Assembly: GCA_023262065.1 (NCBI GenBank) | Contig: JALRDW010000076.1 | Location: 1 to 11,679 of the forward strand | Length of the DNA stretch: 11,679 bases | Reading direction: 5' to 3' | From: Acidimicrobiia bacterium | GTDB lineage: Bacteria > Actinomycetota > Acidimicrobiia > IMCC26256 | Program-made: the position numbers and the translations under genes | Notes under the pieces: generated by a model | Told to the model about the DNA's origin: nothing | Database searches by the model: none | The model's input: only the letters and a program-made list of their open reading frames with translations | Part shown: positions 2,021 through 11,520 of the stretch, one piece after another | How positions within the stretch are numbered: position 1 is the stretch's first letter | Layout: each line of letters begins with the position of its first letter

Positions 2021-2752
2021 TCAGGCCCCGGGTTCGCCGAACATCATGCGCCACTGCTCGAGCGTCGGCAGCCGGAACACGTAGTTGCGGGCGCGGGTCT
2101 CGCCCAGGGTCGCGTGCGGCTCGGCCGAGTAGAGGTGGCCCGGGTAGAGGACCGTGTCGTCCGGGACCCGGGCGAGGCGCTGGGTCAGGGAGTAGTACAG
2201 CTCGTCCGAGTCACCGCCGGGCAGGTCGGTACGCCCGCACCCGTCGAGGAACAGCGTGTCACCGGAGACCAGCCGGCCGTCGACCATGAAGCACTGGCTG
2301 CCCGGGGTGTGGCCGGGGGTGTGGACGAGCGTGATGGACACCGCACCGACCTCGACCACATCGCCGCCCTCGTGGAGCACGAGGTCGGAGTCCGAGAGCC
2401 CGGTGACGCGCTGGACACCCCAGGCCTCCTCGCGGTTGACGTGGAGCTTCGCCCTCACCCCGTCGAGCGCGAGCAGGTCGGCGGCACCCTCGATCTCCCA
2501 ACCCATCATCGAACCGCCGACGTGGTCGGGGTGGTAGTGGGTGGCGAGCGCGCCCGTCACCGTCATGCCGTCGGCACCGGCGATCTCGACGAGCTCCCGG
2601 ACGCCGTAGGCCGGGTCGATCACCATGGCCTCGCCCGTCGCACGGTCACCGACGAGGTAGACGAAGTTCACCATCTGTCGAGCGATCGGATCCTCGACGG
2701 CGAAGTCCCGACCGGCGAGGAGCTGGCGGAAGTACAGGCGATCGTCGGTCAT
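2021..2752 (-). CDS. MBL-fold metallohydrolase, glyoxalase II / persulfide dioxygenase-like
   Basis: A 243-residue metallo-beta-lactamase-fold protein. The metal-site series is complete: His72-x-His74-x-Asp76-His77 in THYHPDHVGG, His148 in HTPGHTPGS, Asp165 in SGDTLF, and His206 in YPGH. The CGRTDLPGGD segment (172-181) recalls the corresponding loop of glyoxalase II and ETHE1-type persulfide dioxygenases. It could therefore be a thioester hydrolase or an iron-dependent sulfur dioxygenase; motifs alone do not decide. The frame stays open to 2974, but residues before ATG 2752 are Ser/Arg/Pro-rich shadow overlapping the divergent gene, while family similarity begins right after MTDDRLYF. No signal peptide. 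It is the first gene of the minus-strand group with the amidase and is divergent from the molybdoenzyme. A TACGCT box eight bases before the ATG suggests a leaderless transcript. Confidence 0.88.
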   Translation of the reverse strand: MTDDRLYFRQLLAGRDFAVEDPIARQMVNFVYLVGDRATGEAMVIDPAYGVRELVEIAGADGMTVTGALATHYHPDHVGGSMMGWEIEGAADLLALDGVRAKLHVNREEAWGVQRVTGLSDSDLVLHEGGDVVEVGAVSITLVHTPGHTPGSQCFMVDGRLVSGDTLFLDGCGRTDLPGGDSDELYYSLTQRLARVPDDTVLYPGHLYSAEPHATLGETRARNYVFRLPTLEQWRMMFGEPGA

Positions 2753-2760
2753 GGTCGTCG

Positions 2761-2766
2761 AGCGTA
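2761..2766 (-). promoter_or_regulatory. -10-like TACGCT box upstream of the MBL hydrolase start
   Basis: On the minus strand TACGCT is followed by eight bases and then the ATG at 2752, with no Shine-Dalgarno sequence between. The spacing puts the predicted transcription start at or next to the start codon. No -35 match is evident. Confidence 0.4.
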
Positions 2767-2791
2767 CCGGCCGACCGGCGCGCCGCGGCCG

Positions 2792-2819
2792 GGACCCGGG
2801 GGTCCGCGCGCACGGACCC
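2792..2819. repeat. Three alternating GGACC/GGTCC half-sites in the divergent intergenic region
   Basis: GGACC at 2792-2796, GGTCC at 2801-2805 and GGACC at 2814-2818 alternate in orientation. The outer pair can be read as a 7-base inverted repeat, GGGTCCG (2800-2806) with CGGACCC (2813-2819) and a 6-base spacer; the inner pair forms a rival, tighter repeat. The array lies in the 121-base gap between divergent genes, just upstream of both predicted -10 boxes, where a regulator could control both. Operator function is inference. Confidence 0.35.
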
Positions 2820-2827
2820 GACGTGCC

Positions 2828-2833
2828 TAACCT
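2828..2833 (+). promoter_or_regulatory. -10-like TAACCT box for the molybdoenzyme gene
   Basis: TAACCT matches TANNNT and lies 40 bases before the ATG at 2874, leaving a leader of roughly 33 bases that contains the GGAGGA ribosome-binding site. No convincing -35 is visible about 17 bases upstream, where the GGACC half-sites lie. Confidence 0.35.
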
Positions 2834-2864
2834 CTCGCGACGGCCGCCCGTCGCCGTCGTCCCC

Positions 2865-2870
2865 GGAGGA
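2865..2870 (+). promoter_or_regulatory. Ribosome-binding site GGAGGA fixing the molybdoenzyme start
   Basis: GGAGGA ends three bases before ATG 2874. The spacing is short, but the match is strong and the protein's conserved part (Arg-Thr-Cys-Pro-x-Cys) begins seven residues later. This favours 2874 over in-frame starts upstream. Confidence 0.65.
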
Positions 2871-2873
2871 CCC

Positions 2874-5099
2874 ATGCGCACGATCGAGTACCGGACCTGC
2901 CCGCTCTGCGAGGCCACCTGCGGCCTCGAGCTGCACATGGAGGGCGAGGAGGTCGTGCTCGTCCGGGGGGACAAGGACGACGTGTTCTCGAAGGGTTACC
3001 TGTGCCCCAAGGGCGCAGCGCTCAAGGACCTCGTGGCCGACCCGGACCGGCTGCGCGCCCCCCTCGTGCGGCGTGGTGACGAGTACGTGGAGGTCAGCTG
3101 GGACGAGGCGTTCGCCGCCGTCCGCGAGGGGCTCATGGGCGTGATCGAGCGGCACGGCCGCGACGCGGTCGGCGCGTACCTGGGCAACCCGTGCGCCCAC
3201 AACCTCGCGCCGATCATCTACAACCGTGCGCTCCTGCAGGGACTGGGCACGACGAACGTGTTCTCGGCGAGCACGGTCGACCAGATGCCCAAGCACGTCT
3301 CGGCGGGCCTGATGTTCGGGACGCCCATCTCGGTGCCCATCCCGGACCTCGACCACACCGACCACCTGCTCATGCTCGGCGCGAACCCGTTCGCCTCGAA
3401 CGGCAGCCTCATGACCGCCCCCGACCTCCCCGGCCGCCTGCGGGCGATCCGGGCCCGCGGCGGACGCATCGTCGTGGTCGACCCGCGCCGGTCGAAGACG
3501 GCCGAGGAGGCCGACGAGTGGGTGGCGATCCGCCCCGGGACCGACGCCCACCTGCTCTTCGGGCTCGTCAACGTGATCCTCGCCAGCGGCCGGGTCGATC
3601 TCGGACGTGCGGAGGGCATCACCGATGGGTTCGAGGTGATCGAGCGCCTCGCCCCGCACTTCACGCCGGAGGCGGTCGCACCGGTCTGCGGGATCCCGGC
3701 GGAGGACGTGCGTCGCCTCGCGACCGAACTCCTCGATGCGCGCACCGCGGCGGTCTACGGGCGGATCGGCACCTGCACCCAGGAGTACGGGACGCTCGCC
3801 TCCTGGCTCGTGGACGTCGTGAACATCCTCACCGGCAACCTGGACCGACCGGGTGGGGCGCTCTTCCCGAAGAACGCGGCCGGCAGCGCGAACACCGGCG
3901 GGACGCCCGGTCGCGGGCGCGGGTTCCGCACCGGTCGTCGGCACAGCCGGGTCGAGGGGAAGCCCGAGGTGCTCGGAGAGTTCCCGGTGGCGACGCTGGC
4001 GAGCGAGATCCTCACCCCCGGGGAGGGGCAGATCCGTGCGCTCGTGACGGTGGCCGGCAACCCGGTCGTGTCCACGCCGGATGCCGGCCGACTCGACGCC
4101 GCGCTCGCGGACCTCGAGTTCATGGTGAGCGTCGACATCTACCGGAACGAGACGACCCGCCACGCCGACGTGATCCTGCCGCCCGGCGGCATCCTCACGA
4201 AGGAGCACTTCGACCTCGCCTTCTACTCCCTCTCGATCCGCAACGTCGCGAACTACTCGCCGCCCATCAACCCGTTGCCGCCCGGCGAGCTGCACGAGTG
4301 GGAGATCCTGCTGCGGCTCGCTGCGATCGCCGGTGGGGCGCAGGGGAGCGCCGAGGAGTGCGCGGGCCTCGACGATCTGATCATCGGGGGCCTGGCGGCC
4401 AAGGCGGCGCAACGGGACGACCTGCCGACGGCCGACGAGATGCTCGAGGCACTCGCCCACCGGCGGGGCCCGGCACGGGTGGTCGACTTCATGCTGCGGA
4501 CGGGTCCGTACGGAGATCGGTTCGGTGCCGATCCGGAGGGGCTGAGCCTCGCCGTGCTCGAGGCGAACCCGCACGGCGTGGATCTCGGACCGCTCCAGCC
4601 CCGCCTCCCCGAGGTGCTGCGCACCCCGACGGGTCGGATCGACCTGGCACCGGACCTCATGGTGGCCGACGTCGAGGCGCGCCTCATCCCGTCGCTCGGC
4701 GCGCCGACACCCGGTCTCGTGCTCGTGGGCCGACGTGACCTGCGGTCCAACAACTCCTGGATGCACAACATCAAGGTCCTCGTGAAGGGCCGACCCCGCT
4801 GCACCCTCCACATCCACCCCGATGACGCGGCCGGTCTGGGCCTCACCGACGGCGCACCGGCCCGGGTGCGTTCGCGGGTGGGTGAGGTCGTGCTGCCGGT
4901 CGAGGTGACCGACGGCATCCGGCCGGGCGTCGTGAGCATCCCGCACGGCTGGGGTCACGGGGCGCCGGGCACGGCCATGCGGGTCGCGGCCGAGTACGCC
5001 GGGGTGAACTCCAACGTCCTCACGGACGCCAGCGTGATCGATCCCCTGTCGGGCAACGCCGTGCTCAACGGCATCCCGGTCGAGGTGGACGCCGCCTGA
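2874..5099 (+). CDS. Molybdopterin-dependent oxidoreductase (DMSO reductase superfamily), substrate unknown
   Basis: A 741-residue cytoplasmic molybdenum/tungsten bis-MGD oxidoreductase; no Tat signal precedes the first domain. The N-terminal [4Fe-4S] site is complete (Cys9, Cys12, Cys16, Cys44) and is followed by Lys46, matching the electron-relay lysine of E. coli FdhH. The central catalytic domain spans roughly 50-560, with MGD-contact segments such as LGANPF and VVVDPRRSKTAEEAD. The C-terminal molybdopterin-dinucleotide-binding domain (about 605-735) contains LVGRRDLRSNNSW and SIPHGWGHG. By my ungapped alignment of residues 129-141 with FdhH, the selenocysteine position is Phe130 and the adjacent catalytic His is Ser131. 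The FdhH arginine motif RGQNNVQG is also missing, so formate dehydrogenase is unlikely. The protein resembles the uncharacterised 'molybdopterin oxidoreductase' type common in actinobacteria. No iron-sulfur or membrane-anchor partner subunit is adjacent. Confidence 0.92.
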   Translation: MRTIEYRTCPLCEATCGLELHMEGEEVVLVRGDKDDVFSKGYLCPKGAALKDLVADPDRLRAPLVRRGDEYVEVSWDEAFAAVREGLMGVIERHGRDAVGAYLGNPCAHNLAPIIYNRALLQGLGTTNVFSASTVDQMPKHVSAGLMFGTPISVPIPDLDHTDHLLMLGANPFASNGSLMTAPDLPGRLRAIRARGGRIVVVDPRRSKTAEEADEWVAIRPGTDAHLLFGLVNVILASGRVDLGRAEGITDGFEVIERLAPHFTPEAVAPVCGIPAEDVRRLATELLDARTAAVYGRIGTCTQEYGTLASWLVDVVNILTGNLDRPGGALFPKNAAGSANTGGTPGRGRGFRTGRRHSRVEGKPEVLGEFPVATLASEILTPGEGQIRALVTVAGNPVVSTPDAGRLDAALADLEFMVSVDIYRNETTRHADVILPPGGILTKEHFDLAFYSLSIRNVANYSPPINPLPPGELHEWEILLRLAAIAGGAQGSAEECAGLDDLIIGGLAAKAAQRDDLPTADEMLEALAHRRGPARVVDFMLRTGPYGDRFGADPEGLSLAVLEANPHGVDLGPLQPRLPEVLRTPTGRIDLAPDLMVADVEARLIPSLGAPTPGLVLVGRRDLRSNNSWMHNIKVLVKGRPRCTLHIHPDDAAGLGLTDGAPARVRSRVGEVVLPVEVTDGIRPGVVSIPHGWGHGAPGTAMRVAAEYAGVNSNVLTDASVIDPLSGNAVLNGIPVEVDAA

Positions 5100-5182
5100 G
5101 CGGCCGCCCGCCGATCCGCCCTCAAGGCGGGGTCAGGGCGCGCCGATGACCTCCGTGGCCGCCGACGTGGGTCGGACGGCGC

Positions 5183-5188
5183 AGGAGG
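5183..5188 (+). promoter_or_regulatory. Ribosome-binding site AGGAGG fixing the carotenoid oxygenase start
   Basis: A consensus AGGAGG lies eight bases before ATG 5197. The in-frame ATG at 5146 has no such site, so 5197 is taken as the start. The rest of the 97-base gap after the molybdoenzyme stop holds only a weak 5-base hairpin (CCGCC-CTCAA-GGCGG, near 5116-5130) and no -10-like box I trust, so the two genes may be co-transcribed. Confidence 0.7.
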
Positions 5189-5196
5189 ATCGTTCG

Positions 5197-6495
5197 ATGA
5201 CCGATGTCGTGGGGGTGGGGGCCGCACCCCGCCGTGCCGATGCGCCGTCGCGCCCGGAGATGCCGCGGGCGGTGGAGCGGACGGTCGACGGCCTCCCGGT
5301 GCGCGGCGCGCTGCCGGAGGGCCTCGAGGGTCGTTTCCTGCTCATCGGTCCGGAGCCCCGACGTGGTCCCGACGGCGTCGACGTCCCCGCCGGCCACGGT
5401 GCGGCCATGGTGCACGAGGTCCGCATCGGCGGCGGTCGTGCTGACTACCGGAGTCGGTGGATCTCCTCGGACGGTCCCGATGCGCCGAGCGCCGGGCTCG
5501 TCACCCACGCGGGACGACTGCTCGCGCTCGGGGCGCACGGGCGTCCCGTGGTCCTCGATGGTTCGCTCGTCCCGATGGGCGACGACGCGGTGGGCGCCAC
5601 TGGGGGGAGTGGCGCCCACGCGCGGGTCGACCCCGTGTGGGATGAGCTCCTCCTCGTGGATGCCGTGCCGGGCGAACCCCGGCTGGCCGTGACGACCATC
5701 GACGTCCGCGGTCGCGTGCGTCGGGTCGCGGAGGTCGCGACCGACGGACCGCTGCTCGTCCACGACTTCGCGATCACCGACCGGTTCGTGGTCCTCATCG
5801 CGACCGGGGCGGTGGAGGACGGCGCACGCGTGCTCTGGGATCCGACCGTTCCCGCCCGCATCGGGCTCGTGGATCGTTCCGCTGAGGCGCCGGAGGCGTC
5901 CTGGTTCGAGGTGGCGCCGCGCGCCGTGTGGCACTTCGTCAACGCGTTCGAACGCGACGGGGAGGTCGTGATCGACCACGTGGCGCACCGGCAACCCGTG
6001 GTGGGTGTCGGCGGTCCGGGCCCGCTCCCGGGATCGACCTCGCCCGCGCTCGTGCGGACGGTGGTGGACCCGGCGACCGGTGGGATCCGGGACGAGGTGC
6101 TCGACGACCGCGCGGTCGAGCACCCGGCGATCGATCCGGCTCGGACCGGACGTCGTCACCGCATCGTCTACGCCGCCCTCGCCGACTCGCGGGCCGTCGA
6201 TCCGGCTGGTGCGTTCGTGGGCCTCGTGCGCCACGACCTCCGGGACGCCTCGTCGGCCGAGTTCCGGCCGGCGGACGGCGCCCGCCTGGGCGCTCCGGTC
6301 TTCGCCCGGCGGGCCGGGAGCACGGGAGAGGATGACGGATGGGTGCTCGCCACGGCCGCCGATCCCATCTCGGGGTCGAGTCGACTCCTCGTGCTCGGCC
6401 CCCGAGCGTTCGCGGCGGCGCCGATCGCCGAGATCGTGCTCCCTGCGCCGGTGTCCGCCGGCCTCGAGGCGCACTGGGCCCCACCGGCACCCTGA
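5197..6495 (+). CDS. Carotenoid oxygenase family protein (CCD / lignostilbene dioxygenase / RPE65 fold)
   Basis: A 432-residue non-heme Fe(II) dioxygenase of the seven-bladed propeller family, which splits a C=C bond in carotenoids, apocarotenoids or stilbenes to give two carbonyl products. The four iron-ligand histidines can be placed: His141 in GAHARVDP, His189 in HDFAITD, His246 in WHFVNAFE, and His426 in AHWAP. The last is six residues from the end, as in cyanobacterial ACO (His484 of about 490). The N-terminal LPVRGALPEGLEGRFLLIGP and the YRSRWI block at about residue 85 are also family-typical. It is shorter than usual (about 480-500), and the usual final FHGxW is replaced by EAHWAP. 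It follows the molybdoenzyme by 97 bases and converges with the HAD phosphatase gene 16 bases away. The substrate cannot be read from sequence; no carotenoid biosynthesis gene is nearby. Confidence 0.88.
   Translation: MTDVVGVGAAPRRADAPSRPEMPRAVERTVDGLPVRGALPEGLEGRFLLIGPEPRRGPDGVDVPAGHGAAMVHEVRIGGGRADYRSRWISSDGPDAPSAGLVTHAGRLLALGAHGRPVVLDGSLVPMGDDAVGATGGSGAHARVDPVWDELLLVDAVPGEPRLAVTTIDVRGRVRRVAEVATDGPLLVHDFAITDRFVVLIATGAVEDGARVLWDPTVPARIGLVDRSAEAPEASWFEVAPRAVWHFVNAFERDGEVVIDHVAHRQPVVGVGGPGPLPGSTSPALVRTVVDPATGGIRDEVLDDRAVEHPAIDPARTGRRHRIVYAALADSRAVDPAGAFVGLVRHDLRDASSAEFRPADGARLGAPVFARRAGSTGEDDGWVLATAADPISGSSRLLVLGPRAFAAAPIAEIVLPAPVSAGLEAHWAPPAP
5590..5619. repeat. 12-bp perfect inverted repeat with a G6 loop inside the carotenoid oxygenase gene
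   Basis: Arms 5590-5601 and 5608-5619 are perfectly complementary and enclose six G residues. It covers codons 132-141, including the codon of iron-ligand His141. It is in coding sequence, so it may be compositional; a stem this long and perfect could slow translation. Confidence 0.7.
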
Positions 6496-6511: not shown

Positions 6512-7135
6512 TCAGCGACGCGCCTCGATGCGGCCCTTCCGCACGAGGTGGGGATGGTCGGCGGCGGCGAGGAGCTCGGTGTCGCCGGCCGAGTCCCCGT
6601 AGGCCCAGACCTCGGCCGCGTCCCCTTGCAACCACGCCGTGAGGCGCGTGACCTTGTTGGCGGCGCGCACGTTGCCGTCGACGAGTCGGCCCGTGAGCCG
6701 TCCATCGACCACCTCGACCTCGGTGGCGAGGGTCGCGTGGGCGCCGAGCGTCGCCACCACCGGGGCGACGTACGTCGCGAGCGAGGCGCTGATCACGACG
6801 ATCCGGTGCCCGGCCTCGGCGTGCCAGGCCATCCGCTCCACGACCTCGGGGTTGAACGGTGCCCGCTCGACGACCCGACGCGCGTACTCGGTCCCGGCCG
6901 CGGTGAACTCGGCGGCCGGACGTCCGGCCAGCAACGAGACGAAGTACCGCTCCTTGGCGAGATCCCGATCCACGCGTCCGAGCGCGGCGCCGCCGAGGCG
7001 GTGGGCGTGGGGGAGTGCGGCCCGGACCATCGCCCGGCGACCGACGAGGTGCACGAGGAAGGGGCCGAGCGTGTCCCTGCGGGTGATGGTCCCGTCGAAG
7101 TCGAACGCCGCGACACCGCGTGTCGGACCGTCCAT
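6512..7135 (-). CDS. HAD-IB family phosphatase, probable DPPR 5-phosphate phosphatase
   Basis: A 207-residue soluble HAD-superfamily subfamily IB phosphatase (phosphoserine-phosphatase-like). All four motifs are present: I, Asp12-x-Asp14 in FDFDGT; II, Ser116 in VVISAS; III, Lys161; IV, Asp181 and Asp185 in YGDSAGD. The helical cap lies at about residues 25-100. No membrane segment is visible. ATG 7135 is five bases after the dprE2 stop, whose TGA forms part of a TGAGG sequence that may serve as a weak ribosome-binding site. Being last in the ubiA-dprE1-dprE2 operon, it most likely removes the 5-phosphate of decaprenylphosphoryl-phosphoribose before epimerisation. In M. tuberculosis that step is assigned to the unrelated PAP2-type Rv3807c. 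Family is certain; the specific substrate is inferred from context. Homoserine/phosphoserine phosphatase activity is the main alternative. The frame extends upstream of 7135 only as Gly/Pro/Arg-rich sequence inside dprE2. Confidence 0.85.
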   Translation of the reverse strand: MDGPTRGVAAFDFDGTITRRDTLGPFLVHLVGRRAMVRAALPHAHRLGGAALGRVDRDLAKERYFVSLLAGRPAAEFTAAGTEYARRVVERAPFNPEVVERMAWHAEAGHRIVVISASLATYVAPVVATLGAHATLATEVEVVDGRLTGRLVDGNVRAANKVTRLTAWLQGDAAEVWAYGDSAGDTELLAAADHPHLVRKGRIEARR

Positions 7136-7140
7136 CGGCC

Positions 7141-7902
7141 TCAGACCGGGAGGCGACGGAAGACCGGACGCGGGACGTGGCGCAGGCCCGACATCACGCC
7201 GCGCAGCGCCGCCGGGACCCACACGATCTCGCGGCCCTTGGCCAGGCCCTCGACGATCGCGTCCGCCACGGCCTCGGGTGTCGTCGCGAGCGGCGCCGGG
7301 TCGAGTCCCTCGGTCATCTTCGAGTGCACGAAGCCGGGCCGCACGATCATCATCCGAACCCCGGTGCCGACGAGCGCGTCCCCCATGCCCTGGCAGAACG
7401 CGTCGAGACCCGCCTTGCTCGAGCCGTAGACGAAGTTCGATCGGCGAGCCCGTTCGCCGGCCACCGAGGAGAGCACCACCACCGTCCCGTGGCCCTGGGC
7501 GCGCATCCGGTCGATCAGGGGGATGAGCACCGACACCGCGCCGGTGAAGTTGGCATCGATGATCGCGAGCGCCGCGTCGGCGTCATGCTCGGCCACGTCC
7601 TGATCTCCGAGGACACCGAACGCCACGAGCACGAGGTCGATGTCGCCGTACTCGGCCCAGCACCGCTCGACGAAGGCACCGTGCGACCCGCGGTCGAGGG
7701 CGTCGAACGAGGCCACCTCGACCCGGCGGGCCCCGGCCCGACGCAACGAGTCCGCACCCTCGGCCATGGCCCCCGGGTCGCGTCCGGCCAGGACGACCGT
7801 GGTCGCCCGGTCGTCGACGAGGCGTCGGGCCGTCGCGAGACCGAGGTCCGAGCCGCCGCCGAGCACGAGCACGGTCTGGACCCCGCCGAGTGCGTCCTGC
7901 AT
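7141..7902 (-). CDS. dprE2: Decaprenylphosphoryl-2-keto-ribose reductase DprE2
   Basis: A 253-residue short-chain dehydrogenase; M. tuberculosis DprE2 (Rv3791) has 254. It reduces decaprenylphosphoryl-2-keto-erythro-pentofuranose, the DprE1 product, with NADH to give decaprenylphosphoryl-arabinose. The nucleotide-binding motif is GGGSDLG at 15-21, and the active site is Ser146, Tyr159 and Lys163 (in FVYGSSKAGLD). Several stretches match my memory of Rv3791 closely: FDALD near residue 66, VAFGxLGD at 93-100, RMRAQG, SSxAGERxRRxNFVYGS, and the C-terminal RHVPRPVFRRLPV against RHIPRSIFRKLPI. ATG 7902 is 53 bases after the dprE1 stop; the weak purine-rich leader AGGCAGGAC precedes it. The frame is open further upstream but lies in dprE1 tail and spacer sequence without family similarity. 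Confidence 0.94.
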   Translation of the reverse strand: MQDALGGVQTVLVLGGGSDLGLATARRLVDDRATTVVLAGRDPGAMAEGADSLRRAGARRVEVASFDALDRGSHGAFVERCWAEYGDIDLVLVAFGVLGDQDVAEHDADAALAIIDANFTGAVSVLIPLIDRMRAQGHGTVVVLSSVAGERARRSNFVYGSSKAGLDAFCQGMGDALVGTGVRMMIVRPGFVHSKMTEGLDPAPLATTPEAVADAIVEGLAKGREIVWVPAALRGVMSGLRHVPRPVFRRLPV

Positions 7903-7955
7903 CGCTGTCCTGCCTGCCTTTCCGGGCCCCACTCGGCCCGGCGTCGTGGGGTCGG

Positions 7956-9323
7956 TCAGAGTCCGAGTCGTCGGGCGAGATCGGACCGCAGCGTCCCGTC
8001 GGGATCGAGGCGGTGCCGCACGGCGCGCCACTCGTCGAGCCGAGGGTACATAGCGGCGAGGTGCTCGGGGCGCACCCGTGCGTCCTTGGCGAGGTACACC
8101 CGGCCACCCGCGTCGAGCACGAGGTCGTCGAGGCCGTCGAGGAGGTTCGGGAGGGTGGGGTCACCCACCGGGATGTCGAGCGCGAGCGTCCAGCCGGGCT
8201 GGGGGAACGAGAGCGGCGCAGGGTTCGCCGGCCCGAACCGCTTGAGGACCGCGAGCAGGGAGGGCGCGCCGGCGAGGCTGAGCCGCTCGACCGCCGTCTG
8301 CACCGCCCGCTCCTGACCGAACGGCACGACGAACTGGTACTGGACGAACCCGCGCGGGCCGTAGAGACGGTTCCAGCCCGTGATGAGGTCGAGGGGGTGG
8401 AAGAACCAGCCGATGTCGACGAGGTGCCCCTCGCTGCGCTTCGGGGACTTACGGAACCACAGTTCGTTGAAGGCCCGGACGGTCCAGCGGTTCACCAGTC
8501 CTGAGGGGAAGATCGGCGGTGCACTGATGACCGCGTGCGGATCGAAGGCCCGCGGGTTCGCCCGTCGCGCCGGCTTGAGGTCCTCGATGCGGGCGTGGTC
8601 GCCGCGGTCGAGGATGCCGCGACCGGTGGATCGGCCGGTGGCGAGGCAGTCGATCCACGCCACGGAGTAGCGGTACTCGTCGTCCCGTGCGTCCATGCGG
8701 GCCATGAGGTCGTCGAGGTCCGAGGCCCGCTCGGTGTCGGCGAGGATCATCGAGGTCTCGACCGGGATGAGGTCGATCTCGGCCTCGGTGATCACACCGG
8801 TGAGGCCCATCCCGCCGGTCGTCGCCCAGAACTCCTCGGGGGTGTCCTCGGGGGTCAGGTGGCGTTCGGTGCCCGTGCCGTCGACGAGGGTCAGTGCACG
8901 CACGTTCGAGCCGAAGGTGCCGTCGGCGTGGTGGCCCTTCCCATGGATGTCGGAGGCGATCGCCCCGCCGACCGTGACCGATCGGGTGCCCGGGGTGACG
9001 AGGAAGAACCCCTCGGGCAGGAGCCAGCGCATGAGGTCGTCGAGGCTCGTCCCGGCGGCCACGGTGGCCCGGGCCCGTTCGACGTCGAGGTGGCGCACGC
9101 CGCGCATGGCCGTGGCGTCGAGCACCAGGCCCCCCGAGTTCTGCGCCGCATCGCCGTACGCGCGGCCCAGCCCGCGTGCGACCACGCCCCGGTGCGGCCG
9201 CTCGCGGACCGCGGCGACGACGTCGGCGTCGTCGAACGGGTGGCGGACCTCGGCGCGCGACGGCGACGTGCCGCCCCAGCCGGACAGGAGCACCTGCGCG
9301 CCGCGCCGTGCGTCAGTGCCCAA
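7956..9323 (-). CDS. dprE1: Decaprenylphosphoryl-beta-D-ribose 2'-oxidase DprE1 (FAD-dependent)
   Basis: A 455-residue FAD-linked oxidase of the VAO/PCMH type; the M. tuberculosis enzyme has 461. It oxidises the C2' hydroxyl of decaprenylphosphoryl-ribose, the first half of epimerisation with DprE2. The FAD domain holds ARGLGRAYGDAAQNSGG (about 49-65), PGTRSVTVGGAIASDIHGK (about 110-129, with His127 equivalent to His132) and GGMGLTG. The substrate domain contains the GFVQYQFVVP, FGPANPAPLSFPQPGW and YLAKDAR stretches, with Lys413 equivalent to catalytic Lys418. Ala381 occupies the position of Cys387. The start is TTG 9323, overlapping the ubiA stop by 11 bases; this gives the usual ~15 residues before the conserved GWG. 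The alternative GTG 9293 would leave only five. No Shine-Dalgarno is visible for either, so translational coupling to ubiA is likely. No signal peptide. Confidence 0.95.
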   Translation of the reverse strand: MGTDARRGAQVLLSGWGGTSPSRAEVRHPFDDADVVAAVRERPHRGVVARGLGRAYGDAAQNSGGLVLDATAMRGVRHLDVERARATVAAGTSLDDLMRWLLPEGFFLVTPGTRSVTVGGAIASDIHGKGHHADGTFGSNVRALTLVDGTGTERHLTPEDTPEEFWATTGGMGLTGVITEAEIDLIPVETSMILADTERASDLDDLMARMDARDDEYRYSVAWIDCLATGRSTGRGILDRGDHARIEDLKPARRANPRAFDPHAVISAPPIFPSGLVNRWTVRAFNELWFRKSPKRSEGHLVDIGWFFHPLDLITGWNRLYGPRGFVQYQFVVPFGQERAVQTAVERLSLAGAPSLLAVLKRFGPANPAPLSFPQPGWTLALDIPVGDPTLPNLLDGLDDLVLDAGGRVYLAKDARVRPEHLAAMYPRLDEWRAVRHRLDPDGTLRSDLARRLGL

Positions 9324-10236
9324 CGAGGATCCCGATCCCGACGGTGATGACCCAGAGCGCGCCGAAGGCCTGGAGCACCCGGTCGGTGAGCACGACCTCC
9401 TCCGGGGCGCCGGCCTCGCCGCGGTCGACGATGAACGCGTACCGCAGGAAGGCGAGGACGAAGGGAACGATCGACACCTCGTACCAAGGGAACCCGCCCT
9501 GCCCCTCGGCCTTCTCGAAGGCCCAGAGGCAGTAGGCGACGAGGGTCACGCCGCTCGCGACGGCCCGCACGTACCCGAGGAACGAGGCGGAGTACACGCC
9601 GAGGGTGCTCCGGACCCGGGCCGAGTCGTCTCCGAGTTCGACCATCTCGGAGTACCGCTTGCCGGCCACGACGAACAGGGACCCGAACGACGCCACGATG
9701 AAGAACCAGACCGAGATCGGCACGTCCACCGCGACGGCCCCGGCCACCGTGCGCAGCACGAACCCGGCGGCGACCATCCCGAGATCGACGACCGGGACCC
9801 GCTTGCCCCAGAGGGAGTACGTCGTGGTGAGGACCAGGTAGACGAGCACGACCACCGGCAGACGCCAGCCCGTGAGGAAGCCGACCGCGAACCCGGCGGC
9901 GAGCAGGCCGACGCCGACGGCCCGGGCGGTGCCGACCGACACCTCGCCCGCGGCGATGGGACGGAACCGCTTGGTCGGGTGGGCCCGGTCGGATTCGACG
10001 TCGGCCGCATCGTTGAGCAGGTAGGTACCGCTGGCGGCGAGGCAGAACGCGACGAAGGCGACCGTCGCCTCGGCGAGGTCGGCCCGCTGGCCGAGCACGC
10101 CGGCGGCCGCCGGGGCCGCGAACACGAGCACGTTCTTGAGCCACTGCTTGGGCCGACACGCGCGCAGCAGGGGCGGCAGGTGCGAACGTCGCCCTCCGGG
10201 GCTCGCCGTGGTGGGGAGTTCCTGGGCCTCGGCCAT
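9313..10236 (-). CDS. ubiA: Decaprenylphosphoryl-5-phosphoribose synthase (UbiA-family prenyltransferase)
   Basis: A 307-residue polytopic membrane protein; M. tuberculosis Rv3806c has about 302. It transfers 5-phosphoribose from PRPP to decaprenyl phosphate, the committed step of DPA synthesis. The first Asp motif is N75-D-x2-D79-x3-D83, followed by RAHPTKRFRPIA (84-95). The second conserved region is YSLWGKRVPVVD (140-151), with Lys145 and Asp151. About eight or nine hydrophobic helices can be seen between residue 36 and the end. The segments FGSLFVVAGKRY, WAFE, PFVLAFLRYAF and LTDRVLQ agree with Rv3806c as I remember it, which separates it from menaquinone or heme UbiA enzymes. A charged N-terminal tail (1-30) ends in the RPKQWLKN entry motif. 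It is first of the four-gene DPA set, and its stop overlaps dprE1. The 60 bases upstream to the MBL gene hold a 7-base GC inverted repeat and no clear -10 box. Confidence 0.93.
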   Translation of the reverse strand: MAEAQELPTTASPGGRRSHLPPLLRACRPKQWLKNVLVFAAPAAAGVLGQRADLAEATVAFVAFCLAASGTYLLNDAADVESDRAHPTKRFRPIAAGEVSVGTARAVGVGLLAAGFAVGFLTGWRLPVVVLVYLVLTTTYSLWGKRVPVVDLGMVAAGFVLRTVAGAVAVDVPISVWFFIVASFGSLFVVAGKRYSEMVELGDDSARVRSTLGVYSASFLGYVRAVASGVTLVAYCLWAFEKAEGQGGFPWYEVSIVPFVLAFLRYAFIVDRGEAGAPEEVVLTDRVLQAFGALWVITVGIGILVGH

Positions 10237-10296: not shown

Positions 10297-11520
10297 CTAC
10301 CGCCGCTCCGGCGCCTCCCCGGTCGCCTCGCGCGACTCCCGCGCCGCCGCACCGAACACGCCCCGGGCCATCGTGGAGGACTCGGCGGCCCGGCGTCGCT
10401 CGAAGACCTCGGCCCGGGCACCGTGGACCGCGGCGTCCTCGGGCGCAGCGAGTGCGGCCCACTCGGCGAGGTGACCGGCGAGGCGCAGGTCCCCGGCCTC
10501 GGCCAGTTCGACCGCGCGGCGCGCCAGCTTCCCGGGACCGCCGGCGAGCGCAGCCACCTCGGCCGCCACCGCGGCATCGGGTGCGGGCTTCAGGGTCGCC
10601 GGATTGCCGTCGTACCAACCCCCGAGCAACCGCCAGATGTTGTGCACGATGAACTCGGGCTCGTCGTAGATCGGGCGGAGGTAGGGCCGTGCGAGCAGGT
10701 GCTCGGGGGCCCGCACCGTGTGGATGATCTCATCGAGGCGCGCCCCGGCGTTCATCATCGCCAGCGTCTCGTCGTAGAGGTGCTCGAGGAGCTCCGCGCT
10801 CTCGGTCAACGCGGCGCGCACGCGGGCCGCGCCCGTGATCGGCAGGCCGTGCCCGGGCAGCAGGATCTCGGCGTCGCAGGCCGCCATGGCCCGGAGTCCC
10901 CGGGCCCAGTCGCGCGGGTACCGCTGCACCTTCTGGGGGTTGCCGGCGTTGGGGGCCACCCCGATGAACAGGTCGCCGCAGGCCAGCACCTTCCGGCCGG
11001 GCACCCACACCCAGGTGCCGTCGTCGGTCTCGCCACGGGCGTGGCGCAGACAGAACGTCTCGCCCCCGATCTCGAGGTCGAGGGCGTCGGTGTAGGTGAC
11101 GTCCGGCCAGGCGAAGTCGGCGTCGGTGCGGGGCCAGCGCACCGCCTCGGGCGGGATGCCGAACTGCACGGCGTTGATGCCGGCGTTGTACCCGGCCGTG
11201 CGCGCGTAGCGGCGGAACCGCTCGGCGACCCCGACGTGCGCCACGATGCGGGGCCGGTCCCCGGCCTCGAGGAACGCCCGGAGCCCGAAGGCGTGGTCGA
11301 CGTGGCCGTGGGTGAACACCACGGTGTGGAGCGGGAGGTCCGTCACCGACCGGACGGCGGTGTGGATGCGGCGGGCGTCCCCGGCGAGGCCGGCGTCGAC
11401 GAGCACCAGGCCGTCGGCGGTGGCGAAGGCCGCCACGTTGACCCAGCCCGGCACGAACCAGGTGCCGGGGGTCACCTCCACGGCGACCGGGTCGCTCGGT
11501 CCGGGGGCTCGGGTGGGCAT
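10297..11520 (-). CDS. MBL-fold hydrolase with alkylsulfatase dimerisation domain
   Basis: A 407-residue protein in two parts. Residues about 12-230 are a metallo-beta-lactamase fold with THGHVDHAFG (His71, His73, Asp75, His76), further candidate ligands Glu164 (ARGETDD) and Asp183 (CGDLF), and His224 in LLPGHG. Residues about 235-375 match the alkylsulfatase dimerisation domain: YDETLAMMNAG, the GWYDGNPATLKP block (301-312), then the GG..ARRAVELAEAGDLRLAGHLAEWA repeat-like helices. The third, SCP2-like C-terminal domain of SdsA1/BDS1 alkylsulfatases (about 650 residues) is absent, so classical alkyl-sulfate cleavage is doubtful; a thioester, lactone or other ester is possible. No signal peptide is visible. 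It lies 60 bases upstream of ubiA in the same direction and may share its transcript, though a pathway link is not evident. Start ATG 11520 has no ribosome-binding site but a TAGCGT box eight bases before it. Confidence 0.85.
   Translation of the reverse strand: MPTRAPGPSDPVAVEVTPGTWFVPGWVNVAAFATADGLVLVDAGLAGDARRIHTAVRSVTDLPLHTVVFTHGHVDHAFGLRAFLEAGDRPRIVAHVGVAERFRRYARTAGYNAGINAVQFGIPPEAVRWPRTDADFAWPDVTYTDALDLEIGGETFCLRHARGETDDGTWVWVPGRKVLACGDLFIGVAPNAGNPQKVQRYPRDWARGLRAMAACDAEILLPGHGLPITGAARVRAALTESAELLEHLYDETLAMMNAGARLDEIIHTVRAPEHLLARPYLRPIYDEPEFIVHNIWRLLGGWYDGNPATLKPAPDAAVAAEVAALAGGPGKLARRAVELAEAGDLRLAGHLAEWAALAAPEDAAVHGARAEVFERRRAAESSTMARGVFGAAARESREATGEAPERR

What the first reader, a model, noticed from the sequence alone, without database searches (positions are those of the whole stretch)
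6512..10236. Compact four-gene DPA (arabinofuranose donor) operon with a HAD-IB enzyme in the phosphatase slot
Seen: ubiA, dprE1, dprE2 and a HAD-IB phosphatase run in order with gaps of -11, 53 and 5 bases. Known: in M. tuberculosis dprE1-dprE2 (Rv3790-Rv3791) lie apart from ubiA and the PAP2-type Rv3807c, the usual candidate for the 5-phosphate phosphatase; a related gene set arabinosylates Nod factors in Azorhizobium (noeC region). Inference: the HAD-IB protein, with intact Asp12/Asp14/Ser116/Lys161/Asp181/Asp185, is a non-homologous replacement that completes the pathway in one operon. If the host is outside Mycobacteriales, it should make an undescribed arabinose-containing glycan.
Basis: partly seen in the sequence, partly recalled or inferred. 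Interest (0 to 1): 0.72.

Follow-up and report, generated by a model that had tools for sequence, protein, structure and literature searches.

The report
HAD phosphatase completes arabinose-donor operon
A group of little-studied water and soil actinobacteria appears to make the same activated arabinose that tuberculosis-type bacteria use for their walls, but with a different kind of enzyme for one step, which suggests that these bacteria carry an arabinose-containing surface sugar still to be described.

Summary
Confirmed: minus-strand ubiA, dprE1, dprE2 and a HAD-IB gene with gaps of -11, 53 and 5 bases, each over its curated cut-off, in an Acidimicrobiia MAG. An operon-type HAD lies by the cluster in 32 of 40 related dprE1 neighbourhoods, groups apart from 28 chosen same-family paralogues and co-occurs with DprE1 (33 of 46 DprE1+ class genomes, 5 of 28 without). 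In two incomplete genomes the locus has ubiA directly followed by the HAD, without dprE1-dprE2. The Rv3807c-type PAP2 sits by ubiA in Mycobacteriales and Streptomyces and was not found in 31 class genomes. Most likely the HAD removes the 5-phosphate of polyprenyl-phosphoryl-5-phosphoribose. Precedent: a HAD domain fused to a UbiA enzyme does this in Citrobacter (PMC11127046); HAD-UbiA fusions precede dprE1-dprE2 in rhizobia. An Asn six residues before the motif-III Lys is in 37 of 38 operon HADs, 9 of 9 fusions and 0 of 28 paralogues. Thirteen DprE1+ genomes have neither phosphatase. The acceptor glycan is unknown; no Emb.

The parts
9313..10236 (-). ubiA: polyprenyl-phosphate 5-phosphoribosyltransferase (DPPR synthase type), 307 aa
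   Evidence: NF008978 377 bits against cut-off 207; PF01040; N-D-x2-D-x3-D at residues 75-83
7956..9323 (-). dprE1: FAD-dependent polyprenylphosphoryl-ribose 2'-oxidase, 455 aa
   Evidence: NF053785 584 bits against cut-off 500
7141..7902 (-). dprE2: SDR 2-keto reductase, 253 aa
   Evidence: NF053786 339 bits against cut-off 250, model position 1 at residue 44 of the longer frame, which is near this start; same start in L045
6512..7135 (-). HAD-IB phosphatase, 207 aa, proposed polyprenylphosphoryl-5-phosphoribose 5-phosphatase
   Evidence: TIGR01490 138 bits against cut-off 98.3; motif residues; N155-x5-K161; model pLDDT 95 with HAD fold
10297..11520 (-). MBL-fold hydrolase with alkyl-sulfatase dimerisation domain, possibly first gene of the same transcript; role unknown
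   Evidence: PF00753, PF14863; 60-base gap to ubiA; a relative next to ubiA in 8 loci counting the window

Best explanation
The four genes make the lipid-linked D-arabinofuranose donor from PRPP. UbiA transfers 5-phosphoribose from PRPP to a polyprenyl phosphate; the HAD-IB enzyme, through an aspartyl-phosphate on Asp12, removes the 5-phosphate to give polyprenyl-phosphoryl-ribose; DprE1 oxidises C2 and DprE2 reduces it to the arabinose epimer. A flippase and a GT-C transferase encoded elsewhere then place arabinofuranose on an unidentified surface glycan. Shown by sequence: family assignments, intact motifs, conserved linkage and co-occurrence. Inferred: the HAD's substrate, the order of steps, the product and its use.
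For: Curated models for all four. An operon-type HAD is in 32 of 40 relatives' dprE1 neighbourhoods, 26 directly after dprE2; in other orders of the class directly before ubiA (7 of 25 further class loci); near dprE2 in two genomes where dprE2 lies away from dprE1 (L240, L249). 38 operon HADs and 5 not linked to dprE1 fall on one side of a branch (support 93/86, just short of the tool's star), 28 chosen paralogues outside. Profile scores are bimodal: best match 199-297 bits in 38 genomes, other HADs at most 103. Co-occurrence with DprE1: 33 of 46 against 5 of 28, Fisher p 9.5e-6; by family 11 of 16 against 1 of 11, p 0.005. In G051 and G055 ubiA and HAD stand side by side, 21 bases apart, without dprE1-dprE2. 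Rv3807c-type PAP2: at most 87 bits in 31 class genomes, 147 in an independent bearer outside the class, 228-252 in three genomes whose sequences are in the profile. Precedent: the HAD domain of Citrobacter ORF15, where D18A accumulates the 5-phosphate (PMC11127046). Asn at -6 of the motif-III Lys: 37 of 38 operon HADs, 5 of 5 not linked to dprE1 and the Lactococcus HAD by a stricter pattern; 9 of 9 HAD-UbiA fusions; 0 of 28 paralogues.
Against: No activity data. 13 of 46 DprE1+ class genomes lack this HAD and also the Rv3807c-type PAP2, so something else can do the step. 5 of 28 class genomes without DprE1 have the HAD; one, G060, is 95% complete. dprE1-dprE2-ubiA clusters with no HAD in the stretch or in UbiA also exist outside: Flammeovirgaceae, and UbiA of Sinorhizobium alkalisoli without the HAD part. 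The co-occurrence counts are corrected for relatedness only by the family count, where a family with any positive genome counts as positive. In one search the fused HAD domains and the Lactococcus HAD do not join the operon clade (long branches). In Citrobacter the HAD mutant kept some activity, so the enzyme may be dispensable. The Asn signature was found after looking at the operon HADs and 3 fusions; only the 6 fusions fetched later are an independent check.
Confidence: 0.85

Rival explanations
1. A PAP2 phosphatase elsewhere in the genome (contig C110) does the 5-dephosphorylation, as Rv3807c is thought to, and the HAD has another job.
For: The own genome has three PAP2 genes; matches to C110 are in 42 of 48 searched genomes, weak ones counted, including DprE1+ genomes without the HAD.
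Against: C110 and 15 relatives form a clade (98/98) apart from the ubiA-adjacent PAP2 clade (100/99); C110 scores 59 bits to the Rv3807c-type profile. Strong C110-type genes (90 bits or more) occur in 4 of 8 searched class genomes without DprE1, and no match was found in the DprE1+ genomes G223 and G266, which have the HAD. C110 is not on the contig of ubiA.
Confidence: 0.07
2. The HAD acts on a different phosphate, such as a serine, histidinol or phosphatidylglycerol phosphate, and sits in the operon by history.
For: It matches phosphoserine and histidinol phosphatase models weakly, its nearest solved folds are a protein of unknown function and SerB enzymes, and sources name some relatives phosphatidylglycerophosphatase C.
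Against: Those models are far under their cut-offs; the linkage survives several gene orders and the absence of dprE1-dprE2; the genome has a separate, higher-scoring TIGR01490 paralogue at C48.
Confidence: 0.05
3. The pathway mainly supplies ribofuranose; dprE1-dprE2 are minor or regulated, and the glycan carries ribose.
For: UbiA-HAD pairs without dprE between them occur in G051 and G055 and in a Lactococcus plasmid; one cultured class member has whole-cell ribose and no arabinose reported (PMC12263773, passages).
Against: The window has complete dprE1 and dprE2 over equivalog cut-offs, and the sister genomes G002 and G003 have all four genes.
Confidence: 0.08

Closest known systems
Mycobacterial DPA pathway (Rv3806c UbiA, Rv3807c PAP2, DprE1, DprE2)
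   Same: UbiA, DprE1 and DprE2 are members of the same curated families.
   Different: HAD in place of PAP2; genes in one operon; no Emb in 19 class genomes searched; no GtrA-family gene in four genomes of the genus.
Citrobacter youngae ORF15 three-component system (PMC11127046)
   Same: A HAD-family phosphatase paired with a UbiA phosphoribosyltransferase; shared role by inference.
   Different: There the HAD is the N-terminal domain of one protein and the product is polyprenyl-phosphoryl-ribofuranose; here it is a separate gene beside dprE2, with dprE1-dprE2 for arabinose. I did not have the ORF15 sequence to align.
HAD-UbiA fusion (NF006088) with GtrA, DprE1, DprE2 in Rhizobium, Ruegeria and Azospirillum plasmids
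   Same: Same four activities in one cluster; Asn-x5-Lys at motif III.
   Different: Fusion protein and a GtrA gene in the cluster; HAD domain far from the window's in the tree.
Lactococcus cremoris pF27D UbiA-HAD-IB-GtrA cluster
   Same: Separate HAD-IB gene directly after a decaprenyl-phosphate phosphoribosyltransferase; 26% identity along the window HAD; NCHGAEK at motif III.
   Different: No dprE1-dprE2 annotated in the 10.8 kb read, so ribose is expected; under the TIGR01490 cut-off.
noeCNHOP of Rhizobium sp. IRBG74 (PMC5080398, passages)
   Same: UbiA, DprE1 and DprE2 homologues for arabinosylated Nod factors.
   Different: The UbiA gene there has 387 aa, like that of Sinorhizobium alkalisoli, which on scanning lacks the HAD part; the gene in the noeN position is annotated GtrA.

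Membership tests
Decaprenyl-phosphate phosphoribosyltransferase (UbiA superfamily) | Over the cut-off of an NCBIfam equivalog | tested here: met
   NF008978 377.4 bits, cut-off 207; two sister models with the same name, NF008976 and NF008977, are under their cut-offs
Decaprenyl-phosphate phosphoribosyltransferase (UbiA superfamily) | N-D-x2-D-x3-D loop whose residues matter in Citrobacter ORF15 (PMC11127046) | tested here: met
   NDAADVESD at residues 75-83
DprE1 | Over the cut-off of NF053785 | tested here: met
   584.4 bits, cut-off 500
DprE2 | Over the cut-off of NF053786 | tested here: met
   338.7 bits, cut-off 250
HAD-IB (TIGR01490) | Over the curated cut-off, with the HAD motifs and a helical cap between strand 1 and motif II | tested here: met
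   138 bits, cut-off 98.3; residues; model with helices 23-107 between the strands 6-11 and 111-119
Polyprenyl-phosphoribose phosphatase (PRP) of Kelly et al. 2024 | Removes the 5-phosphate from the UbiA product | not testable with these tools
   needs an assay
Polyprenyl-phosphoribose phosphatase (PRP) of Kelly et al. 2024 | Fused to the UbiA domain | tested here: not met
   separate gene; linked instead
Polyprenyl-phosphoribose phosphatase (PRP) of Kelly et al. 2024 | Groups with fused HAD domains in a tree | tested here: inconclusive
   fusions and the Lactococcus HAD are long branches outside the operon clade; shared Asn-x5-Lys
Rv3807c-type PAP2 | PAP2 of the ubiA-adjacent clade | tested here: not met
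   the window gene is a HAD; own PAP2 C110 lies outside that clade and scores 59 bits
Mycobacterial arabinogalactan machinery | Emb arabinosyltransferase (PF04602) | tested here: not met
   0 of 19 class genomes; 3 genes in G433

The most novel reading that the evidence does not exclude
Across much of the Acidimicrobiia a stand-alone HAD-IB enzyme is the standing phosphatase of a D-arabinofuranose donor pathway that feeds an undescribed arabinose-containing surface glycan made without Emb enzymes; HAD phosphatases marked by Asn-x5-Lys at motif III are the widespread bacterial solution to this step, and the PAP2 of Mycobacteriales and Streptomyces relatives is the lineage-specific exception.
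Probability: 0.4. Interest if true: 0.65.

Novelty: new variant of a known kind. Interest (0 to 1): 0.5.

Why it matters
The 5-phosphatase is among the less certain steps of the arabinose donor pathway, whose enzyme DprE1 is a drug target in mycobacteria. A lineage that codes the whole donor pathway in one operon with a soluble HAD gives a simple way to assay the step in vitro, and a sequence mark (Asn-x5-Lys) to look for such enzymes elsewhere. It also predicts arabinose, or ribose where dprE1-dprE2 are absent, at the cell surface of little-studied aquatic and soil actinobacteria.

Tried and rejected
Considered and set aside: (a) HAD as a chance neighbour: rejected by linkage, tree and scores. 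(b) Own PAP2 C110 as the Rv3807c counterpart: rejected. (c) The large conserved gene after the HAD in family f13 as an Emb-like transferase: it is methionine synthase. (d) A third phosphatase next to the cluster in families without the HAD: 7 of the 10 proteins came from such loci (f24, f31, f23); six matched families that are not phosphatases and one matched none. Not exhaustive. (e) The GT39-like gene F22 as the transferase of the window's genus: found in 13 of 55 genomes, 0 of 4 of the genus. (f) Literature: on arabinose in Acidimicrobiia, searches listed no paper that reports it among the titles and abstract starts I saw (15 of 176, 4 of 4 and 12 of 1,232 listed). A HAD in this slot in actinobacteria was not seen in the listings; the main text of PMC11127046 has none of the actinobacterial terms, and its supplement could not be read. 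(g) A paper on Rv3807c (PMC3889854) is not held.

Rows dropped or limits: 28 paralogues are those of the stretches I fetched, told from the operon type by score (at most 99 bits against 194 or more) before the tree was built. One search examined 80 of the 112 handles first named; the 20 class genomes left out all have DprE1, and 19 of these show the HAD in their neighbourhood, so leaving them out does not favour the association. Of the eight plasmid loci, two (Flammeovirgaceae, Natronococcus) hold no annotated fusion and were not used for the Asn count; Natronococcus was not examined further.
Full report
WHAT IS THERE. The window is a whole contig (C25) of a MAG of 2.10 Mb, 300 contigs, 79% complete. 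On the minus strand lie ubiA, dprE1, dprE2 and a HAD-IB gene with gaps of -11, 53 and 5 bases. All four exceed curated NCBIfam cut-offs. AlphaFold gives a confident model (pLDDT 95) whose best solved matches are 3fvv, a protein of unknown function, and SerB phosphoserine phosphatases: a HAD with a helical cap, which by itself does not tell the substrate.

HOST. The class is Acidimicrobiia by this route: contigs of three genomes of the same genus or order in my set have the length of contigs of named records, two of them with the same gene positions: G001:C176 is WLHA01000257 (Actinomycetota MAG UFOp-RE-4nov15-119), G038:C32 has the length of SHUZ01000053 and G049:C351 is JAFMJM010000079, both titled Acidimicrobiia. 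A complete genome of the same genus (G003) has the same four genes and the same downstream genes (carotenoid oxygenase, molybdopterin oxidoreductase, MBL hydrolase, amidase); the gene upstream of ubiA differs.

LINKAGE. I searched DprE1 in 61 genomes of the order and class (39 over the cut-off) and took 40 neighbourhoods besides the window's, two of them from genomes with partial matches only. An operon-type HAD is in 32 of 40: 26 directly after dprE2 (in one, L070, split in two frames), 3 directly after dprE1 where dprE2 is not between (one of these a fragment at a contig end), 2 some 2-3 kb after dprE2, 1 before ubiA; 5 have none although the contig goes on; in 3 the contig ends before the slot. 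In a wider draw of 396 genomes of the phylum 63 have DprE1 at E 1e-60; I took 60 further neighbourhoods. Of these 25 are of the class, and 7 of the 25 have the HAD, each before ubiA; 35 are of other classes, with PAP2 overlapping ubiA in 7 and the HAD in none. No neighbourhood has both. In 80 named loci (the best 80 of at least 592, and in part the same genomes) 14 have the HAD (one a contig-end fragment), 14 a ubiA-adjacent PAP2, none both, 52 neither within the stretch held. The 14 HAD records are titled Acidimicrobi- or only Actinomycet- names, one an isolate, Acidiferrimicrobium sp. IK; the PAP2 bearers include Streptomyces, Blastococcus and Saccharothrix.

ORTHOLOGY. In a tree of 75 HAD sequences, 38 operon HADs and 5 HADs not linked to dprE1 (families f25 and f30) lie on one side of a branch with support 93/86, and 28 other TIGR01490 members of the same and other genomes outside it. 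A profile of 19 operon HADs separates the two kinds in 80 genomes: best match 199-297 bits in 38 genomes, other HADs at most 103 bits; two truncated operon-type pieces score 161 and 57 bits (at most 39 candidates per genome were scored and the weakest matches are not listed). In f25 the HAD is present in 8 of 8 genomes but on another contig than dprE1; in f30 it lies near dprE2 away from dprE1 (L240, L249).

CO-OCCURRENCE. Of the 74 class genomes, 46 have DprE1 and 33 of these the HAD; 28 lack DprE1 and 5 of these have the HAD (Fisher p 9.5e-6). By family, a family with any positive genome counted as positive: 11 of 16 against 1 of 11 (p 0.005; family f6 left out as its DprE1+ genome was not). 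Among genomes at least 90% complete: 30 of 42 against 1 of 18. The five exceptions are G040 (dprE1 broken by stops), G056 (contig piece with dprE2-HAD), G051 and G055 (below) and G060.

A NATURAL EXPERIMENT. In G051 and G055 (80% and 64% complete) ubiA is followed 21 bases later by the HAD, with no dprE1-dprE2 between. The flanks are those of other f13 genomes: an M17 aminopeptidase relative beside ubiA in G051, methionine synthase after the HAD in G055. No DprE1 over E 1e-16 was found elsewhere in these two bins, but both are incomplete. The HAD has stayed with ubiA and not with the epimerase, as an enzyme acting on the UbiA product would.

PAP2. The own genome has three PAP2 genes. C110 has strong counterparts across the class, also in 4 of 8 searched class genomes without DprE1. 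ubiA-adjacent PAP2 proteins from four mycobacteria-like genomes, Nocardia farcinica and seven f49 genomes form one clade (100/99); C110 and 15 relatives form another (98/98); the other two own PAP2 genes did not reach the profile and are not in the tree. A profile of 12 of the first kind gives 228-252 bits in three genomes that contributed to it, 147 in an independent genome outside the class, and at most 87 in 31 class genomes, 59 in the own genome. The 12 have FPS[SA]H; all but none of the C110 type and other PAP2 rows have the usual [PAS]SGH (21 of 21), the first kind 0 of 12.

PRECEDENT. Kelly et al. 2024 (PMC11127046; outline, passages and sections 7 and 12 read) showed that a HAD domain fused to a UbiA enzyme in Citrobacter youngae ORF15 removes the 5-phosphate; the D18A mutant accumulates the 5-phosphate product but keeps some activity. 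They state that Rv3807c is unrelated to HAD-family enzymes. In plasmid records I found HAD-UbiA fusions (NF006088) in front of GtrA-DprE1-DprE2 in Rhizobium, Ruegeria and Azospirillum (in the last with an acyltransferase gene between dprE1 and dprE2), and a separate HAD-IB gene after UbiA in Lactococcus cremoris. Against a general rule: a Flammeovirgaceae cluster has UbiA-DprE1-DprE2 with no HAD in the 6.8 kb read, and the UbiA of Sinorhizobium alkalisoli lacks the HAD part.

A SHARED MARK. Two invariant residues of the operon HADs, Asn155 and Arg157, precede the motif-III Lys161. The pattern N-x-[RH]-x2/3-K is in 37 of 38 operon HADs, 5 of 5 not linked to dprE1 and the Lactococcus HAD, and in 0 of 28 paralogues; the three fusions first seen have Asn at the same place. 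In six further fusions fetched afterwards (Sphingomonadaceae, Granulicella, Vibrio, Agrobacterium, Azospirillum ramasamyi, Mesorhizobium) Asn-x5-Lys stands 19-21 residues before motif IV in 6 of 6 (the alignment took in only one of these six because its search pattern missed the others). Whether this is common descent or convergence the tree cannot say.

WHAT IS MISSING. Emb (PF04602) is in 0 of 19 class genomes and in G433. GtrA is in 0 of 4 genomes of the genus. The genus has several PMT_2-type GT-C matches, 4 in the own genome and 7 in G003, two of the latter under the cut-off, any of which might use the donor. In family f12 a GT39-like GT-C gene overlaps or follows the HAD, a good candidate there, but it was not found in the window's genus. 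So the acceptor is open. Thirteen DprE1+ class genomes have neither phosphatase.

VERDICT. The HAD is very probably the 5-phosphatase of this donor pathway (0.85). As a kind it is a variant of something known: a stand-alone HAD where Citrobacter has a fused one and mycobacteria have PAP2.

Noticed in passing
window 10297-11520 (-): MBL-fold hydrolase with alkyl-sulfatase dimerisation domain directly upstream of ubiA; a relative is next to ubiA in 8 loci counting the window, not in G003.
   Followed up: partly
L046:5677-7692, L051:325-2340, L060:5621-7699, L047:11808-13787: GT39-like GT-C gene (DUF7846) overlapping or just after the HAD in family f12; candidate arabinofuranosyltransferase.
   Followed up: partly
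L148:13148-14365 and L170:6842-7744: Phosphodiester glycosidase (NAGPA-like) genes near the cluster in family f25 and in the Lactococcus UbiA-HAD-GtrA cluster.
   Followed up: no
L395:5858-6280: In the IRBG74 arabinosylation operon the gene in the noeN position, proposed in PMC5080398 as the 5-phosphatase, is annotated GtrA family, so it may rather be a flippase; its partial mutant phenotype would fit. Identified by position only.
   Followed up: partly
L271, L272: ubiA-HAD locus without dprE1-dprE2 between flanks known from relatives; a ribofuranose version is predicted.
   Followed up: yes
L274:4852-6809: dprE1 of G040 is broken into pieces by stops while dprE2 and HAD remain; decay or sequencing error.
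   Followed up: no
L120-L126, L334, L341, L344: Streptomyces and f49 genomes carry dprE1-dprE2 divergent from an overlapping ubiA-PAP2 pair, yet the one f49 genome tested has no Emb match (G390).
   Followed up: partly
window 2751-6495 (+): Carotenoid-oxygenase-like (RPE65) and molybdopterin oxidoreductase genes converge on the operon; kept in the sister genome G003.
   Followed up: no
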